Below are positions 38,895 through 46,235 of a stretch of 64,000 nucleotides of DNA, piece after piece. Origin of the DNA: Streptomyces sp. KMM 9044 (GTDB taxonomy: Bacteria; Actinomycetota; Actinomycetes; Streptomycetales; Streptomycetaceae); the NCBI RefSeq assembly GCF_024701375.2, contig NZ_CP113910.1:186001-250000 (forward strand). The letters are read 5' to 3'. The position numbers and the translations under genes were made by a program. Within the stretch, counting starts at the first letter, position 1. Every line of letters starts with the position of its first letter. The notes under the pieces were generated by a model, which ran no database searches, was not told the DNA's origin, and saw only the letters and a program-made list of their open reading frames with translations.

Positions 38895-38916
38895 CGGCGC
38901 CGGCGAGTAGACCCTC

Positions 38917-39056
38917 GACTCTGCTGCTCGATTCGAGGGGGGGCACGCACCGCGTCCGGGAGGGGCCGGCCGGGGCCGGACCGCCTCCTCGCGAGGCCCG
39001 TTCCCTGCGCCCCGTCGGCAGGCCGGCGTCACTCTTCGCAATGGAGCAACAGAGTC
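38917..39056 (+). mobile_element. MITE-like element, family A (copy A1)
   Basis: A 140-bp non-coding element is bounded by inverted termini GACTCTGCTGCTCGATTCG and its partner ending CAACAGAGTC. It is about 85-90% identical by eye to copies at 44247-44388 (inverted) and 45639-45781. The interior holds no gene. It lies in tandem with family B copy B1. Direct repeats ACCCTC at 38911-38916 and 39203-39208 flank the A1-B1 pair as a unit. Confidence 0.85.
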
Positions 39057-39062
39057 GACCTG

Positions 39063-39202
39063 GACTCTGCTGCGCCATTCGGCGAGCGATCACGTGCCAT
39101 GCTTTCAGGGCTCGGCCGCGCCCGGCCTGCCTGCATCTGCGACGCGCTCTGAAGGCCGTATCGGCACGGCGTCATCACGCCGGGTAATTGCGCAGCAGAG
39201 TC
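39063..39202 (+). mobile_element. MITE-like element, family B (copy B1)
   Basis: This 140-bp element starts GACTCTGCTGCGCCATTC and ends GCGCAGCAGAGTC. It shares terminal sequence with family A but has an unrelated interior (CATCTGCGACGCGCTCTGAA). The second copy, inverted, is at 45788-45927. Only GACCTG separates it from A1. Confidence 0.85.
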
Positions 39203-39208
39203 ACCCTC

Positions 39209-39389
39209 CACTTCAAAGCGAGCATGAATGTTTTCATACGCCTTGAAAACCGGATGGCATATATAAATACTGCTGGCGGATCACGACATGTCCTGCGCGA
39301 ACGCCCAAGACCGTCGGATCGCCCCCTGGACCGGGGCAGCCCCACCCGTCGCCCACCCCAGCGACGCCGCACACCCGGAAGCGATGATC
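39209..39389 (+). promoter_or_regulatory. A/T-rich leader region before the 122-aa protein
   Basis: The segment around 39225-39275 (GAATGTTTTCATACGCCTTG, then GGCATATATAAATACTGC) is strikingly A/T-rich for this genome and contains TTGAAA and TATAAA-like hexamers. It is a likely promoter, but spacing is not ideal and no precise -10/-35 assignment is made. The MITE B1 end lies just upstream. Confidence 0.35.
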
Positions 39390-39758
39390 ATGACCGTGAC
39401 GTCCACGCGCCTCAGTCCGGACTGGCCCTGCCAGGTCAAGGCACCCGGCAGCTACGACTGGGAGCGCTCGGCGGCCAGGTGGCTGCGCGAGCTGGTGCCG
39501 GCGCGCTACGCGAGCTACCCCGCGTTCATCCGGCACCCCGTCCTGCTGGCGCGGCACGCCCAGATCCAGGTCGAGCACGAGATCCGGGTGGCGCGCACCG
39601 CCCTGCAGACGGCACGGGCCGACCTGCCCCGGCTGGGCCTGCACGAAGGGGTCATCGAGCACACGATCAAGCTGTACGCGGCCGAGGTCATGCAGTTGCA
39701 GCACATCGCCCGCAGCGTGCGCGCGGTCACCCGGGCGCTGGTGGAATCGGGCCGCTGA
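39390..39758 (+). CDS. Conserved hypothetical protein (122 aa)
   Basis: The protein reads MTVTSTRLSPDWPCQVKAPG, SYDWERSAARWLRELVPARY, then helices with HPVLLARHAQIQVEHEIRVA and LGLHEGVIEHTIKLYAAEVM. It is mostly alpha-helical, soluble, and belongs to a Streptomyces group of unknown function as far as I can tell. ATG 39390 fits GGAAG at an 8-base spacing better than ATG 39384. It is convergent with the peptidoglycan-binding protein gene. Confidence 0.65.
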   Translation: MTVTSTRLSPDWPCQVKAPGSYDWERSAARWLRELVPARYASYPAFIRHPVLLARHAQIQVEHEIRVARTALQTARADLPRLGLHEGVIEHTIKLYAAEVMQLQHIARSVRAVTRALVESGR

Positions 39759-39785
39759 CCGGGACGGCGGGCAGCCGCTCGGGCG

Positions 39786-40565
39786 TCATCCCGTACGGGA
39801 CTCCAGCGCGCGGCGGGTGTCGTCGCCGTAGACGCCGGTCTCGTCGCCCTGGACGCCGTACCAGAGCTGGAACCGGGCGACGGCCGCCGACAGGGTGGCG
39901 TCGTAGCGGCCGTTGGCGGCGCCGTCGCGGTAGACGTCCGGAATGCGCAGGAGCCGTTCCTGAAGTTCGGTCACCTCAGGGCCCGAGTCACCCTCGCTGA
40001 GGAACCCGGGGGTGGCCGGAGCCCGCACGGGCGGCGTGGTGGGAGCGGTCGCGGGCGGGCTCGCGGAGGGGCGGGGGCCGGGCGTGGCACGGTCGTCGGA
40101 GTTCTGCCCCAGAAGCAGGACCGCTCCGCCGAAGCCGAGTACCGCCGCCGCGGCCACGGCGATCGCCAGGGCGGCCCGCCGCGTCGCGGGGCTGTGTGTG
40201 GAGGCGTGCGGGGGCCGGCCGGGCGCGGCGCTGTCGTCCGAAGGGCCGCGGGGCGAACGGCGCCGGGGGGCCGTGCGGCCGGATGCGGGAGCGTGACGCG
40301 TGAAGCTCTCGTGCGCCGGGCCGGGCACGGCCGTCGGCGGCCGGGTGGGCGGTTCGGGGGCGAGCGACGGGAACTCCTGTGTCTCGTCCTCCGCACCGGT
40401 CGGGGGCCGGGACAGGGTGACGGACTCGTAGCCCTCGTGCTCCTCCCGTTCGAACTCCTTGAACAGTTCGGCGAGCGCGTCCGTGCGGCGGGGGCGCAGG
40501 ACGCGGACGGGCTCGAGGGGTGGCGGGCCGTCGTGCGGCTGACCGGGGTCGGACGGCGTCGGCAC
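39786..40565 (-). CDS. Membrane-anchored peptidoglycan-binding-domain protein (259 aa)
   Basis: An N-terminal cytoplasmic region contains VRVLRPRRTDALAELFKEFE and a Pro/Arg-rich stretch. One membrane segment (about 133-155, ALAIAVAAAAVLGFGGAVLL) follows, then a Pro/Thr-rich linker and a C-terminal PG_binding_1 domain (GDSGPEVTELQERLLRIPDV, then GRYDATLSAAVARFQLWYGV). The domain would sit outside the membrane and bind cell-wall peptidoglycan. GTG 40565 follows GGAAGGAGAGCAGC. The ATP-grasp gene is immediately upstream on the same strand. Confidence 0.85.
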   Translation of the reverse strand: MPTPSDPGQPHDGPPPLEPVRVLRPRRTDALAELFKEFEREEHEGYESVTLSRPPTGAEDETQEFPSLAPEPPTRPPTAVPGPAHESFTRHAPASGRTAPRRRSPRGPSDDSAAPGRPPHASTHSPATRRAALAIAVAAAAVLGFGGAVLLLGQNSDDRATPGPRPSASPPATAPTTPPVRAPATPGFLSEGDSGPEVTELQERLLRIPDVYRDGAANGRYDATLSAAVARFQLWYGVQGDETGVYGDDTRRALESRTG

Positions 40566-40638
40566 GCTGCTCTCCTTCCGCTGCCCACGAGGGCGGGGCC
40601 GCCCACGGGAGGAGATACGCGCCGGGAGCGGCGGAGGT

Positions 40639-41480
40639 TCAACCGGCGGCACGCAGAAAACGGTGCAGGGAAGCCGTCATGGCGGACACGAAGGACTCCC
40701 GGGACGCCGCGTCCAGGACGTCGAGGGACAGGTACGGGTTCAGGTCCTCCAGCTCGACCAGCAGCAGTTCGCCGTCCGGGGCACGGCAGGCGTCGACCCG
40801 CTGGATGCCGTGGTCGAGGGTGTTCCAGCCGACGAAGCCCCGGGCGAACTCCAGGTCGCGCGGGGTGGCTTCGTACGACTCCAGCTGCCAGCGCCGGCCG
40901 GAGTCCGGGGCGTACAGGGCGCACTGGATGTCGTGGTCGACGAAGGAGAAGGAGACCTCGTACGCGAAGTCGACGTACGGCTGCACCAGCACGCTGCCGC
41001 CGACGAGCTCCCGCACCGCGTCCGCGGCGACGACACGCAGCCCCATCGAGTCGGCGCCGAGCCTGGGTTTGACCACGTACCGGTCCGCCGGGGGCAGCAC
41101 GTGCAGGTCCTCCGCACGGCCGACGGTGGGGATCACCGGCCACCCGGCCGCGCTCAGTTCGAGCAGATACTGCTTGCCGGCCGTGTCGCCCCGGCCGGCA
41201 AGCGGGTTGTAGACCGGTTTCCCGGTCTCCGCGGCCCGCTCGCGGAAGGCGTCGTAGGCGTCCCCGGGTATGTCATGACCGGGCCGCTGTTGCGGACGAT
41301 CACGGCGTCGAACCCGTCCGTCGGCGCGGCGGCGTCCCTCGGACGACAGAGCGTCAGGTCGAAGTCGGCGCGCAGTCGGGAGGCGAGCTGGACGTCCTCG
41401 TCGCCGTAGCGACGCCCGCGGGCCGGATACGCCGGATCGGTGACGTACAGGAGGCGGGGACGGGGGCGGACGGGCGCCAT
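40639..41480 (-). pseudogene. ATP-grasp domain protein interrupted by a frameshift
   Basis: ATG 41480 opens MAPVRPRPRLLYVTDPAYPA, GDEDVQLASRLRADFDLTLC, VIVRNSGPVM, a typical preATP-grasp N-terminus. Near 41265-41275 the protein moves to another frame, continuing DAYDAFRERAAETGKPVYNP, DRYVVKPRLGADSMGLRVV, VLVQPYVDFAYEVSFSFVDH and LLLVELEDLNPYLSLDV to 40639. The latter is a full ATP-grasp core with the VKP Lys and the E-x-N metal-binding site. A single base change in length would rejoin the halves into about 280 residues. The substrate is unknown, and there is no precursor peptide beside it. Confidence 0.8.
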
Positions 41481-41708
41481 ACAGGGCTCCTCGAGGGGAC
41501 GACAGCGACCTGATCATACGAATGATCCATAGGTGCCGAAACGGCGCAGGAACACGGGTGACACAACCGAGGGGTACAGAGTGCCTTTACCGGTGGCACT
41601 GAGTGCCATACCCTGTCGCCGTGCACGGTGGCACAAGACACGCCGGGTGCATGCGTGCCGGGGCACCGTGCACGCGGGATGGCGACCGAGTGCAGGGAGT
41701 TGACCAGC

Positions 41709-42125
41709 GTGCACCACCACTCAGGAAGCGTGGCTCAGCAGACAGCCGGCGCCACGACGGGGCTGCTCGAACCCCGGGGCACGAACAGCGCGGAGGCTTT
41801 GGCCTTCCAGCGGTGCACCTGGTGCGGCACCGCGATGTACCACCGGCTGCTGTGCCCCGTCTGTCAGGGCAGCGACCTGCGCACCGAGCGCAGCGCGGGC
41901 GTCGGCACGGTCCGTCACTCCACGACACTGCACCGCAACACGCCGGCCGCCCGGAACGTGTCCTTGATCGAGATGGCCGAGGGCTTCGTCGTCCGCGGCA
42001 GGGTCATGGGCCCGCCGATCGGCATCCACAGCGGGGACCGGGTGCGGCTGTCCACGGCCAAGGACCCGGTGCGCGGCGAGCCGGTCTTCCAGCTCGTCGA
42101 CGAGCCCTACCGTGCCTGGACCTGA
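41709..42125 (+). CDS. Zn-ribbon/OB-fold (DUF35-type) protein
   Basis: The 138-residue protein has a rubredoxin-like zinc ribbon (QRCTWCGTAMYHRLLCPVCQ, four Cys) followed by an OB-fold: GVGTVRHSTTLHRNTP, SLIEMAEGFVVRGRVMG, GIHSGDRVRLS. DUF35/OB-fold acyl-CoA-associated proteins usually accompany thiolases or acyl-CoA enzymes, yet no such partner is adjacent. GTG 41709 follows CAGGGAGTTGACCAGC; the frame is open from 41628. Cytoplasmic, no signal peptide. Confidence 0.75.
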   Translation: MHHHSGSVAQQTAGATTGLLEPRGTNSAEALAFQRCTWCGTAMYHRLLCPVCQGSDLRTERSAGVGTVRHSTTLHRNTPAARNVSLIEMAEGFVVRGRVMGPPIGIHSGDRVRLSTAKDPVRGEPVFQLVDEPYRAWT

Positions 42126-42173
42126 CCGTCCGCCCGGCATCCTTTGGACAGCGGGAGTCGGGCCGGCCGGAGT

Positions 42174-42560
42174 TCAGCCGTCGAGTGTGACGCGGATGCC
42201 GACGGTGCCGTCCCGGCCCCGGCGCAGCCGACTGCCGAGCAGCGCCAGCCGGCCCGACAGGCCGTACTTGCGGGCGATCAGCTCGCGGTAGCGGGCGGTG
42301 GTGGCCGCATCGCAGAGCGCCGCGGTGGCCGGGACCTGGTCACCGCTCGGACGGCCGCGCACGTCACAGGGGCCGACCAGGACATCGGCACGGGCCCGGA
42401 TCCGCTTCACCTTCCAGGAGCCGGCGGCGGTCCAGACCCCGAGCGCGTCCCCGTCCCGCACCACCCACACCGGGGTGGCCACCGGCGTGCCGTTCCGCCG
42501 GTGGCTGGTGACCAGCAGATACTTTCCCGCTCCCAGCCGTTCGAGCAACGCGTTGTCCAT
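42174..42560 (-). CDS. PPOX-class F420-dependent oxidoreductase-like protein (128 aa)
   Basis: The sequence MDNALLERLGAGKYLLVTSH, NGTPVATPVWVVRDGDALGV, WTAAGSWKVKRIRARADVLV, GPCDVRGRP and RELIARKYGL follows the split-beta-barrel PPOX/F420 binding family block by block. Actinomycete members often use F420 rather than FMN. The physiological substrate cannot be predicted. ATG 42560 has only a weak AGGG upstream. It is divergent from the S1 protease gene. Confidence 0.85.
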   Translation of the reverse strand: MDNALLERLGAGKYLLVTSHRRNGTPVATPVWVVRDGDALGVWTAAGSWKVKRIRARADVLVGPCDVRGRPSGDQVPATAALCDAATTARYRELIARKYGLSGRLALLGSRLRRGRDGTVGIRVTLDG

Positions 42561-42744
42561 ACCCTGCAGTCTAGGCCAGCCGTCGCCTCCTGTGGTCGGT
42601 GCGCGGGCCGGTCGAGACCTCCCGGCACCGGGTCGCTCCGGCGGTGAACACGACGGGGTCCGCATCCGTATGGACTGAGGGCACTCGACTCAGGGGAGGC
42701 CCCGCGGTGTTTCGCACCGCGCTGCTCTGGTTCGGGAGTCATGC

Positions 42745-44103
42745 ATGAGGCACGCACGACGACGGGTCGTTCGGCGAGTGACACGGCTGGCGGCCGTCGG
42801 CGGACTCCTCCTCGGAGCGACGATGGTGACTCGCGCCGTCGCGAGTGAACCCCCGGCGCCGGACCCGGTCCCGTACGCCGCGTCCGAGGAGGACACCGGA
42901 CCCGGCTCCGCACTCGTGTCGCGGCTCGGTTCCTCCCGCACGGCGGGCAGCTGGCTCGGCGAGAACGGGCGGACGGTCGTCGCGGTCACCGACGAGAAGG
43001 CCGCGGCCGAGGTGCGGGAGGCCGGCGCGGACCCGAAGATGGTGCGCCACAGCATGCGCGACCTGAAGTCGGCCACTCGGACGCTGGGGTCGGCGCCACG
43101 CGTGCCGGGGACGGCCTGGGCCATGGACTACCGGTCGAACGAGGTGGTCGTACGCGGCGACAGCACGGTGTCCGCTGACGACTGGTCCGATCTGACCCAA
43201 GTGGCAGAAGGAGCAGGTGGTTTTGTCCGTATGGAACGCACCGAGGGCACCTTCACCACACGGATCAACGGGGCTGAGCCCATTCTGTCGACCGCCGGAC
43301 GCTGTTCCGCGGGCTTCAACGTGACCGACGGCAAGCGTGAGTTCATCCTCACGGCCGGGCACTGCGGGCCGGACGGGTCGGTCTGGTTCGCCGACGACGG
43401 AGGCAGGAAGAAGGTCGGCACCACGGTCGGCGGCAGCTTCCCCGGTGACGACTACTCCCTGATCGAGTACGACGGCGGCCGGGCCGGCGAGGGTGCCGGC
43501 GTCGTCTCGGTCGGCAACGGCCAGGGTGTACGGATCACGGGTGTCGGCGACCCCACCGTCGGCCAGCGGGTGTTCCGCAGCGGCAGCACCAGTGGGCTGC
43601 GCGACGGCGAGGTGACGGCACTCAACGCGACGGTGAACTACCCGGAGGGCACGGTCGGCGGCCTCATCGAGACCAATGTGTGCGCCGAACCCGGTGACAG
43701 CGGCGGCCCGATGTTCTCCGAGGGCATCGCGCTCGGTGTGACGTCGGGCGGCAGCGGCGACTGCCGGCAGGCGAGCGGTACGACGTTCTTCCAGCCGGTC
43801 ACGAAGGCACTGGCGCAGCTGAAGGTGGACCTCCTCGTGGCCCCGACTGGCGGGGGCGACGCGGACACGGCCGCCCCCGCTCCGTCGGGGGAGGGTGCGG
43901 CGGCTCCGGGCGCCGCGTCACCGGGTTCGTCGGCGGGGATCAGCGCGTCGACGCTGCTGCCCCGCCTGGCCGACCCGCGGAACGTGGGGCCCGGGATGCT
44001 GGTCATCGGGGGCAGCCTGATGGCTCTGGTGGCGACCCGCTGGATCCGGTCGGAGCAGGACCGCAAGGCGTACCAGCGGTACTACTCGGCGACATGGGGC
44101 TGA
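42745..44103 (+). CDS. Secreted, C-terminally membrane-anchored S1 (streptogrisin-like) protease
   Basis: A 452-residue exported protease has an N-terminal signal or membrane segment (about 13-33) and a pro-region. The trypsin-like domain has His206 (ILTAGHCG), Asp236 (GDDYSLIEY) and Ser319 (AEPGDSGGPMF). The order and GSTSG, NATVNYPEG motifs match streptogrisin/alpha-lytic-type enzymes. A Pro/Ala/Ser-rich linker (about 366-405) leads to a C-terminal membrane helix (about 416-432, MLVIGGSLMALVA) and a basic tail, which should leave the protease displayed on the cell surface. Most relatives end after the protease domain. A second family member lies at 61.4-62.7 kb. Confidence 0.9.
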   Translation: MRHARRRVVRRVTRLAAVGGLLLGATMVTRAVASEPPAPDPVPYAASEEDTGPGSALVSRLGSSRTAGSWLGENGRTVVAVTDEKAAAEVREAGADPKMVRHSMRDLKSATRTLGSAPRVPGTAWAMDYRSNEVVVRGDSTVSADDWSDLTQVAEGAGGFVRMERTEGTFTTRINGAEPILSTAGRCSAGFNVTDGKREFILTAGHCGPDGSVWFADDGGRKKVGTTVGGSFPGDDYSLIEYDGGRAGEGAGVVSVGNGQGVRITGVGDPTVGQRVFRSGSTSGLRDGEVTALNATVNYPEGTVGGLIETNVCAEPGDSGGPMFSEGIALGVTSGGSGDCRQASGTTFFQPVTKALAQLKVDLLVAPTGGGDADTAAPAPSGEGAAAPGAASPGSSAGISASTLLPRLADPRNVGPGMLVIGGSLMALVATRWIRSEQDRKAYQRYYSATWG

Positions 44104-44246
44104 GCCGGTTGCCGGCCCGAACCTCGGTGAGGAGGCTCACACGTGACCCGGGCAGCTCCAGCCACGAGGACGGCGGACGCGCCCCGGCCAAGGTTGGGGC
44201 GGGCCGGGCGGCAGGGCAGGCGGAAGGAGGAGCGGCGAGAGTGGAA

Positions 44247-44388
44247 GACTCTGTTGCTCCATTGCGGAGAGGGACGTCGGCCTGTCGGCGGGGCACAGGG
44301 AACGGGTCTCGCGAGGAGGCGGTCCGGCCGTCGGCCGGCCCCTCCCGGATGCGGTGCGTGACCCTCCCCCGAATGGAACAGCAGAGTC
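44247..44388 (-). mobile_element. MITE-like element, family A (copy A3, inverted)
   Basis: The 142-bp sequence is the reverse complement of copies A1 and A2, with termini GACTCTGTTGCTCCATTGC and its partner ending AACAGCAGAGTC. Flanks TGGAA (44242-44246) and TGGAA (44391-44395) are similar but offset, so the target duplication is less clear than for the other pair. Confidence 0.8.
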
Positions 44389-44418
44389 GATGGAAGGCGG
44401 CAAAGCCCGTGCGGCGCC

Positions 44419-44592
44419 TCAGGCCGCCTCGGCCCGCTCGGGGAAGGCCTCGGCCCACTCCTGGACGAGGCGCTGGTACTCCGCGCGCTGCTCGCCGCTC
44501 AGTGTCCCGCCCGACCGGAGCCACAGGGCCCGGATCTCCTCGTTGACCTCGGCAGCCGATCGCTCGGGTGACGGTTCAAGAGTGGTGGACAT
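44419..44592 (-). CDS. Small conserved hypothetical protein (57 aa)
   Basis: From ATG 44592 the protein reads MSTTLEPSPERSAAEVNEEI, RALWLRSGGTLSGEQRAEYQ, RLVQEWAEAFPERAEAA. It is helical and acidic, resembling short Streptomyces proteins with an E-I-R-x-L-W-x-R-x-G-G-x-L core. No ribosome binding site is obvious; ATG 44604 could also initiate. MITE A3 lies just downstream of its stop. Confidence 0.5.
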   Translation of the reverse strand: MSTTLEPSPERSAAEVNEEIRALWLRSGGTLSGEQRAEYQRLVQEWAEAFPERAEAA

Positions 44593-45638
44593 GCTGTGAA
44601 GCATAGGGCCGTCGGCGTGAAAGCCGCGCGAGCATTCACGAACCAATCGGACATAACCGACAGTGTCGCTGATCACGTCCATCTACCATGGAACGTGGGC
44701 GAGTTCACATCCCGGGCTCCCGTCCGGAGCCGTTCTGGGCCCTCCCCAGCCTTTTCGACTCCGCCTTCACAGCCAAGGGGCCCACGGGCGAGCGCACGAC
44801 GACGAACCCGACCGGGCCAGCAGCCGGACCAGTCCGATCGTCTCCGGTGAAGGGCACGCGTTCATGACGTTCTCGCTCGGCATCGTCGGCGCCGGCCGGT
44901 TCGCCGCCCTGTTCCAGCCTGTTCCAGGCGTACCCCGGCGTCGGTGACATCCACGTCACCGACCTGTTGCCGCAACGGGCCCGGCAGCTCGCCGCCGCGC
45001 ACGGACTCGCCGGCACCTTCCCGCGCCGTACGAGGCCGTGCTGGGGTCGGCGAGGATCGACGCGGTCGGGGCGACCGGTCCGGCGTACACCATGGGCGAG
45101 ACCGGTCGGCACCACCCCACCCGGCCACGGTCCACGCCCGCAACCGGACCGCCGAAGGCGCCTTCGGGCGGCTGTTCCACGCCGAGGGCGGCTACGTCCA
45201 CGACATGGACCCCGGCTTCTACGAGGCGTACCGGTGCAGCGACGACGACGGGAAGGCCACCGCCGGCTGTCCCCCGCTGCTGTACCCCACGCGCGCGGTG
45301 GGCGGAGTGCCGGGTGTCTGGCGGACGCACGCGACCGGTGTCTCCGCGACCGGTGTCGGGGACGAACGCGGGGATGGCGTCCTCGACAGGGAGATCAGCC
45401 GGTTCGACAACGCCACCGCCCTGTTCGAAGTGGCGGGCGGCGGCGCGTTCCGCACGAACGAGTTCCGGCGGGTCGGTTCCTCGCACCCCGGGGAATCACG
45501 GTTCCGGTTCTTCGGTACGGAGGCGAGCATGGAGCAGCTCGCCACGGTCTCGGTGTGGCAGGACAAGAGCAGCGTCCAGGGGCTCCGCGAGCTGCTGCAG
45601 CCCGCGGAGCCCCTGGACCCGAACGCCCCTCCGCGCAT

Positions 45639-45781
45639 GACTCTGCTGCTCAATTCGGGGGAGGGTCACGCACCGCATCCGGGAGGGGCCGGCCGGGGCG
45701 CCGGACCGCCTCCTCGCGAGACCCGTTCCCTGCGACCCGTCGACAGGCAGGCGTCACTCTCCGCGTTGGAGCAACAGAGTC
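45639..45781 (+). mobile_element. MITE-like element, family A (copy A2)
   Basis: This 143-bp copy has termini GACTCTGCTGCTCAATTCG and CAACAGAGTC. GCGCAT occurs immediately before it, between it and B2, and after B2, as expected of a 6-bp target-site duplication. Confidence 0.88.
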
Positions 45782-45787
45782 GCGCAT

Positions 45788-45927
45788 GACTCTGCTGCGC
45801 AATTACCCGGCGTGATGACGCCGTGCCGATACGGCCTTCAGAGCGCGTCGCAGATGCAGGCAGGCCGGGCGCGGCCGAGCCCTGAAAGCACGGCACGTGA
45901 TCGCTCGCCGAATTGAGCAGCAGAGTC
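45788..45927 (-). mobile_element. MITE-like element, family B (copy B2, inverted)
   Basis: The 140-bp element is the reverse complement of B1 with termini GACTCTGCTGCGCAATTACC and AATTGAGCAGCAGAGTC. It is separated from A2 only by the 6-bp repeat GCGCAT. Confidence 0.88.
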
Positions 45928-46235
45928 GCGCATCGCGCCAAAGCCCCGCTCGGCCCTCGCCTCGGGTTCGGCGGCGCACGACCGCTCCCGGCTCCTCCGC
46001 GAGTTCGGCCTGCTGTCCGACGGGTACGAGAGCAGCCACCACCGTCCCGCGGACGACTTCGTGACCGCCGTGAGCACCTGTGTCCTGCCCTCGGTGAGCG
46101 CCCGGGTGGCCGCCCGTCACACCCTGCCCGGCATCGTGGCCCACCAGCCGGCGCTGCGGGGCGGCACCAGGCTGGAGATCCCGGACTTCGGGGACGCGCC
46201 GCAGGTGTGACCGCGGCACCGCGGAGGTCGGACCG

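What the first reader, a model, noticed from the sequence alone, without database searches (positions are those of the whole stretch)
38917..45927. Two MITE-like families, A and B, sharing the same termini in five copies
Three copies of a ~140-bp family A element and two of a ~140-bp family B element all begin and end with GACTCTGCTGC-type inverted termini, while the interiors of A and B are unrelated. In both places where B occurs it sits exactly 6 bp from an A copy, in either orientation. This suggests both are mobilised by one transposase that is absent from the window and that they may move or accumulate as pairs.
Basis: seen in the sequence. Interest (0 to 1): 0.82.

Follow-up and report, generated by a model that had tools for sequence, protein, structure and literature searches.

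The report
Mini-transposons stacked by target reuse
Two families of tiny mobile DNA elements in this bacterium land a fixed distance from the short DNA word CTTTG, and because landing leaves that site usable, later elements stack onto earlier ones exactly six bases apart.

Summary
The window holds three A (140-143 bp) and two B (140 bp) elements with GACTCTG-type inverted ends; both B copies lie 6 bp from an A.

The census of the whole genome has 102 complete elements (56 A, 46 B) in 78 arrays, including 22 A/B pairs and one B-A-B. They are MITEs. Eight full-length IS1182-type elements elsewhere share their ends, and six of eight share the target rule.

New here: insertion occurs beside a one-sided tag, YTTTG-N5-[6-bp duplication]; TTTG is present at 64 of 74 unique sites. 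Insertion leaves tag and hexamer intact, so a later element enters the same hexamer, giving X-A-X-B-X. All three hexamers are identical in 17 of 22 pairs. The tag is on the B side in 19 of 19 pairs with old-type A. Diversity and duplication decay both say old A is older than B.

So most pairs formed in place. Four junctions sharing spacer GACCTG remain ambiguous. Pairs are far commoner than random use of tagged sites predicts, so resident elements may attract newcomers.

The parts
38911..38916 (.). outer 6-bp duplication ACCCTC of pair 1
38917..39056 (+). A element of pair 1 (140 bp)
39057..39062 (.). 6-bp spacer GACCTG, unlike the outer hexamers; the same spacer occurs at three other junctions in the genome
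39063..39202 (-). B element of pair 1 (140 bp)
39203..39208 (.). outer 6-bp duplication ACCCTC of pair 1, B side
39214..39218 (-). target tag CTTTG (reads CAAAG on +), 5 bp from the duplication, on the B side
44247..44388 (-). solo A element (142 bp); flanks GTGGAA / GATGGA do not match as cut (3 mismatches)
44401..44405 (-). possible tag CTTTG of the solo A: it is in place only if one extra G (44389) is read as part of the element, when the hexamers become GTGGAA / ATGGAA; counted as a miss in the statistics
   Evidence: read by eye
45633..45638 (.). outer hexamer GCGCAT of pair 2
45639..45781 (+). A element of pair 2 (143 bp)
45782..45787 (.). spacer GCGCAT, identical to both outer hexamers
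45788..45927 (+). B element of pair 2 (140 bp)
45928..45933 (.). outer hexamer GCGCAT of pair 2, B side
45939..45943 (-). target tag CTTTG (reads CAAAG on +), on the B side

Best explanation
A and B are non-autonomous mini-transposons (MITEs) moved by an IS1182-family transposase encoded elsewhere in the genome. The enzyme inserts them beside a one-sided tag: YTTTG, 5 bp, then a 6-bp staggered cut that becomes the duplication. Insertion leaves the tag and the hexamer next to it in place, so the site stays usable. A later element enters the same hexamer, giving YTTTG-N5-X-[new]-X-[old]-X: an exact 6-bp spacer, with the newest element nearest the tag. Shown from sequence: the ends, the duplications, the tag, the spacing, the polarity, the relative ages, and reuse of one site by different elements. 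Inferred: that the IS1182 transposase is the enzyme; that pairs form by two successive insertions; and that something further (a resident end, or hot sites) raises the rate of second insertions.
For: Tag: TTG/CAA at exactly 12-14 nt at 64 of 74 unique sites and six or more at no other offset from 3 to 37; at the 53 tagged sites with perfect duplication the next base out is T in 53 and the one after is C in 46, T in 7, positions not used to select them; 3.3e-4 expected per position. Triple identical hexamers in 17 of 22 pairs. Polarity: tag on the B side in 19 of 19 pairs with old-type A; on the A131 side in 3 of 3 arrays with A131, two of them copies of one locus. Ages: mean divergence old A 7.6%, B 1.4%, A131 1.4% (10 of 13 copies; 2.3% with all); perfect duplication in 11 of 23 solo old A, 21 of 22 solo B, 9 of 10 solo A131. 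Enzyme: IS1182 model NF033551 310 bits, cut-off 270, for the one copy tested; tag at 6 of 8 full-length copies, and at 4 of 4 with perfect duplication. Other genomes: tag at 10 of 14 two-ended elements, 5 of 6 with perfect duplication. Site reuse: one site in a multi-copy repeat is empty in six copies and holds A131 in either orientation, B, or one end of an IS1182 copy in others; an IS1182 copy and B share 40 of 40 left-flank bases up to the same hexamer.
Against: 10 of 74 unique sites lack the exact tag (4 of these have one mismatch), including 4 of 57 with perfect duplication. 17 of 74 sites lack a perfect duplication. Two of 8 own IS copies and 4 of 14 elements in other genomes lack the tag; of six further regions with only one visible end, three show it at that end. 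One spacer is 10 bp. Random use of tagged sites predicts about 1 shared site, not 21, so regeneration alone does not explain the frequency. Target regeneration would also allow B-B and A-A pairs, of which 0 and 1 were seen. The IS copy whose ends match B best (425929) has a broken frame. No transposition was observed.
Confidence: 0.85

Rival explanations
1. The pairs move as units (A-spacer-B) mobilised by the outer ends.
For: Spacer GACCTG recurs at four junctions; at three the outer hexamers match each other but not the spacer, as after insertion of a unit. All four share a B variant close to the junction that 10 of 46 B carry. A at 5871698 and C3:26401 share variants not seen in the other A copies aligned.
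Against: 17 of 22 pairs have spacer equal to both outer hexamers. Different pairs have different spacers and four relative arrangements. A parts of the GACCTG pairs are 94-96% identical at best and usually closer to other A copies; B at 225063 has its own variants.
Confidence: 0.07
2. Insertion is directed only by the ends of resident elements (as IS30 can do next to its inverted repeats), without need of the tag.
For: A/B sharing of sites is far above random use of tagged sites. Ends at the junction are like ends (left-left or right-right) in 15 of 19 old-A/B pairs; three of the 19 share the GACCTG spacer and may not be independent, so this is marginal.
Against: End targeting alone should fill both sides of A; B is on the tag side in 19 of 19. 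Solo elements obey the tag as well.
Confidence: 0.04
3. Regeneration plus a small set of intrinsically hot sites: second insertions are frequent because both families use the same few favourable sites, not because a resident element attracts them.
For: One site in a multi-copy repeat was hit several times independently. It needs no new activity of the transposase.
Against: About 120 usable sites would be needed to make 21 shared sites unsurprising (P 0.21 at N=120, 1.2e-7 at N=300); the window has 21 YTTTG per 64 kb, some 2,400 per genome, of which 16 of 21 look non-coding by a crude test. No flank position outside the tag carries more than 0.35 bit. Hot sites should also give A-A and B-B pairs.
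Confidence: 0.4

Closest known systems
IS1182-family insertion sequences
   Same: Transposase model matched above its cut-off; inverted ends; one member, ISPse1, has a short duplication (4 bp; PMC3281130, passages)
   Different: The IS1182-family member IS1272 targets inverted repeats and replaces them without duplication (PMC5678879, abstract and passages). Here there is a 6-bp duplication and a one-sided YTTTG tag.
IS30 dual targeting (hot spot or next to its own inverted repeats)
   Same: Elements end up next to one another with a fixed short spacer (PMC9333248, passages)
   Different: IS30 end-targeting gives only IRL-IRR junctions by a separate route and 2-bp duplications at hot spots; here the spacer is the 6-bp duplication, the tag is needed on the newcomer's side and like ends tend to meet.
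TIME elements (Tn3-derived MITEs) and TIME-COMP composites
   Same: MITEs of an identifiable transposon family; two MITEs can mobilise what lies between them (PMC4133298, passages)
   Different: TIME-COMP are 2.5-3.9 kb units with DNA between the MITEs; here the MITEs are 6 bp apart and mostly formed in place.

Membership tests
MITE | short element with terminal inverted repeats, many copies | tested here: met
   102 complete copies of 131-144 bp
MITE | target duplication of constant length | tested here: met
   perfect 6-bp duplication at 57 of 74 unique sites; one 10-bp case
MITE | no coding capacity | tested here: met
   for A by length variants that break any frame; for B only by its 140-bp size, no ORF search made
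MITE | autonomous partner with the same ends and duplication | tested here: met
   eight IS1182-type copies, 1.85-1.97 kb; ends similar over about 17-19 bp to the copy compared
IS1182 family (the partner) | transposase matches the family model | tested here: met
   NF033551, 310.4 bits against 270, one of eight copies tested
IS1182 family (A and B as its derivatives) | mobilised by that transposase | not testable with these tools
   inferred from shared ends, duplication and tag
IS1272-type inverted-repeat replacement | no duplication; target inverted repeat removed | tested here: not met
   6-bp duplications; empty paralogues carry one copy of the hexamer
IS30-type end targeting | insertion next to resident ends independent of the hot spot | tested here: not met
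   newcomer on the tag side in 19 of 19
composite MITE unit | inner spacer constant, outer hexamers new at each site | tested here: inconclusive
   17 of 22 pairs contradict it; three of the four GACCTG junctions fit

The most novel reading that the evidence does not exclude
Resident MITEs act as landing platforms: the transposase prefers a tagged hexamer that already abuts a MITE end. Old, decaying MITE families then recruit newer ones in a fixed direction and build time-ordered stacks that can be read from one genome; like pairs are erased by recombination, so mixed pairs are what remains.
Probability: 0.4. Interest if true: 0.75.

Novelty: new variant of a known kind. Interest (0 to 1): 0.62.

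Why it matters
It gives a precise target rule for a branch of the IS1182 family, which I did not find in the papers searched. It turns an odd pairing into a simple mechanism: insertion leaves its own landing site usable. The polarity allows relative ages of insertions to be read from one genome. The excess of mixed pairs makes it directly testable whether a resident transposon end attracts relatives.

Tried and rejected
Rejected: a known RNA (five Rfam matches at E up to 1, all far below their gathering scores and none inside both A and B). A conserved protein in A (length variants). Simple internal deletion of the IS at 425929 (matches of any length only at the outer 17-19 bp). Presence on known plasmids (no match for the 289-bp pair 2 in 72,556 records).

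Led nowhere or little: the N6 junction pattern in genome contigs gave 11 stretches, six of them one Ktedonobacter palindrome with a constant TTGATT centre, none Streptomyces; the own record may be left out there. B by DNA in 199 same-genus genomes (four candidates scored per genome): besides the own genome only four weak partial hits. Relatives found later by their ends: A at 87% and 83% in G316, B at 77% in G272; neither genome was among those. Of about 60 loci compared, one other B match (47 bp at the edge of L133) is probably a neighbouring own B copy, not checked.

Empty site of window pair 2: in the nine relatives aligned the joined site differs by gaps of 3, 6 and 3 bp; the 6-bp gap, as placed, lies 3 nt from the hexamer, so this alignment does not prove the exact hexamer. 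The multi-copy repeat does.
Full report
OBSERVATION. The five elements are real and the coordinates are right. The window is G000:C1:186001-250000 of a 7.43-Mb, three-contig genome. The end pattern GACTCTGYTGCKC occurs 198 times genome-wide against 1 in the reversed control. B core: 46 copies. A core: 62 copies at up to 3 mismatches. Both ends could be placed for 102 of these 108 (56 A, 46 B); six A copies were left out of the census, and a few A copies too diverged for (for example 2848167) are not in it.

SPACING. The census has 78 arrays: 33 solo A, 22 solo B, 22 two-element A/B arrays and one B-A-B. A junction pattern allowing 0-25 bp found 24 junctions, 23 with 6 bp and one with 10 bp. 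Three census junctions have end mismatches that the pattern missed, and three pattern junctions involve elements outside the census, so I count 27, of which 26 have 6 bp.

TARGET RULE. Four arrays whose near flanks repeat those of another were dropped, leaving 74 unique sites. TTG on the left or CAA on the right lies at exactly 12-14 nt at 64 of 74; at no other offset from 3 to 37 do six or more sites share it. Perfect 6-bp duplications: 57 of 74; of these 53 have the tag and 4 do not. At those 53 the next base outward is T in all and the one after is C in 46 and T in 7; these two positions were not used to choose the sites. The rule is YTTTG-N5-[N6]. The chance of the tag on either side of a random window position is 3.3e-4. 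The exact tag is missing at 10 sites, 4 of them with one mismatch. The solo A of the window counts as a miss; with one extra G it would fit (by eye).

THE ENZYME. A search with one IS1182-type transposase gave 17 matches in the own genome, none in the window. Eight belong to elements of 1.85-1.97 kb with GACTCYGNTGC ends. The one tested is IS1182 family (NF033551, 310.4 bits, cut-off 270; Pfam DDE domains). Six of eight have the tag at the exact place, including 4 of 4 with a perfect duplication; four of eight lack the duplication. The copy at 425929, which shares 17 bp with the left end of B, has a frame break. In other same-genus genomes I fetched 20 regions from the list. Fourteen elements with two ends were scored: 10 have the tag, and 5 of the 6 with a perfect duplication. 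Of six further regions with one visible end, three show it there. One search found such ends in 40 of 392 genomes, 220 in the own genome and at most 12 in any other.

STACKING BY TARGET REGENERATION. Insertion at YTTTG-N5-X gives YTTTG-N5-X-[element]-X, with tag and X still side by side. A second insertion there gives YTTTG-N5-X-[new]-X-[old]-X. First prediction, three equal hexamers: 17 of 22 two-element arrays; three more differ by one or two bases; two have a foreign spacer. Second prediction, newcomer on the tag side: in 19 of 19 arrays of old-type A with B the tag is on the B side (by my arithmetic 2e-6 if sides were random). In the three arrays with the short A131 variant it is on the A131 side; two of the three are copies of one locus. 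Third prediction, other clocks: mean divergence of old A 7.6% (43 copies), B 1.4% (43 of 46, duplicates dropped), A131 1.4% (10 of 13; two duplicates and one outlier dropped; 2.3% with all 13); perfect duplication in 11 of 23 solo old A, 21 of 22 solo B and 9 of 10 solo A131. The clocks separate old A from the other two; they do not order B against A131.

NATURAL EXPERIMENTS. A multi-copy repeat (with a transposase-like frame, not classified here) carries CTTTGAGCAG-GGCATT-CGCGCG. Six copies have it empty, five at 100% and one at 99% over 303 bp; more distant copies of about 80% were not examined. Others hold A131(+) (1418752, and 4954723 with a further 1.76-kb insert in its tip), A131(-) plus B (6448905 and 6740266, near-identical surroundings) and, at C3:99570, one end of an IS1182 copy whose other side is rearranged. 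At another repeated sequence an IS1182 copy (L128, no duplication left) and B at 7313606 share 40 of 40 left-flank bases up to the same hexamer. For window pair 2, joining the flanks at one GCGCAT gives one open frame. By my count of the listing, 87 of the 294 other genomes searched align over at least 390 of its 400 bases in one piece; in nine aligned in detail there are gaps of 3, 6 and 3 bp, the 6-bp one close to the hexamer as placed.

WHAT REGENERATION ALONE DOES NOT EXPLAIN. Of 74 unique sites A is at 54, B at 41 and both at 21. The window has 21 YTTTG on both strands, which scales to about 2,400 per genome; held stretches of this genome, a biased sample, suggest up to about 4,900. At N=1700 1.3 shared sites are expected (P 8e-23); about 120 would be needed to make 21 unsurprising. 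By a crude codon-position test 12 of 74 occupied sites, 5 of 21 YTTTG sites in the window and 230 of 400 random window positions look coding, so tolerance alone does not shrink the number enough. Either resident ends attract insertion or an unseen feature makes some sites hot. B-B pairs were not seen and A-A once (5717289; two direct copies, 3 differences in 123 bp, one truncated). That like pairs are lost by recombination or as palindromes is general knowledge, not tested. In 15 of 19 old-A/B arrays like ends face each other, two-sided P about 0.02 by my arithmetic and weaker if the GACCTG arrays are not independent.

THE GACCTG JUNCTIONS. Four junctions share this spacer. At 3551760 it equals both outer hexamers; at 224917 (window pair 1), 5871552 and C3:26401 the outer hexamers equal each other but not the spacer. 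That looks like movement of a unit that formed at 3551760. Against it, the A parts are not sisters and B at 225063 has its own variants. All four B share a variant near the junction that 10 of 46 B carry, which fits either unit movement or conversion of the junction. I leave this open.

LITERATURE. Searches for IS1182 with target, MITE, palindrome, Streptomyces and tandem terms listed no paper whose title or abstract start described this tag or stacking. I saw the abstract and passages of PMC5678879 (IS1272) and passages of PMC3281130, PMC9333248 (IS30), PMC6053426, PMC7188733 and PMC4133298; no whole text; all others only as listings. ISfinder and most subscription papers are outside the library.

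SCORES. The core (MITEs, tag, target reuse) I hold at 0.85. Whether resident elements attract newcomers is open (0.4).

Noticed in passing
G000 C1:7313606, C3:3912 and C3:104810: B copies with identical or near-identical 300-bp flanks lie near the right end of the chromosome contig and near both ends of the 109-kb contig C3, as if the replicons share terminal repeats.
   Followed up: no
G000 C3:26251-26689: B-A-B array with one 10-bp spacer, GCAGACCCGT, that repeats the 10 bp before the first B: a rare 10-bp duplication.
   Followed up: partly
L128 and L131 (C1 about 747 kb and 722 kb): The hexamer GAGATC is right of one IS1182 copy and left of the other, and neither copy has a duplication of its own: perhaps recombination between the two copies.
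   Followed up: no
L163, L164, L165, L168, L169, L171 (Ktedonobacter): A conserved palindrome AAAGCACCAGAGTC-TTGATT-GACTCTGGTGCTTT with constant centre; looks unlike the A/B pairs.
   Followed up: no
window about 45039-46210: Pair 2 sits inside a reading frame that is continuous when the flanks are joined and has homologues across the site in many same-genus genomes.
   Followed up: partly
A alignment, whole genome: A copies look mosaic: the same few variants occur in many combinations, suggesting conversion between copies.
   Followed up: no
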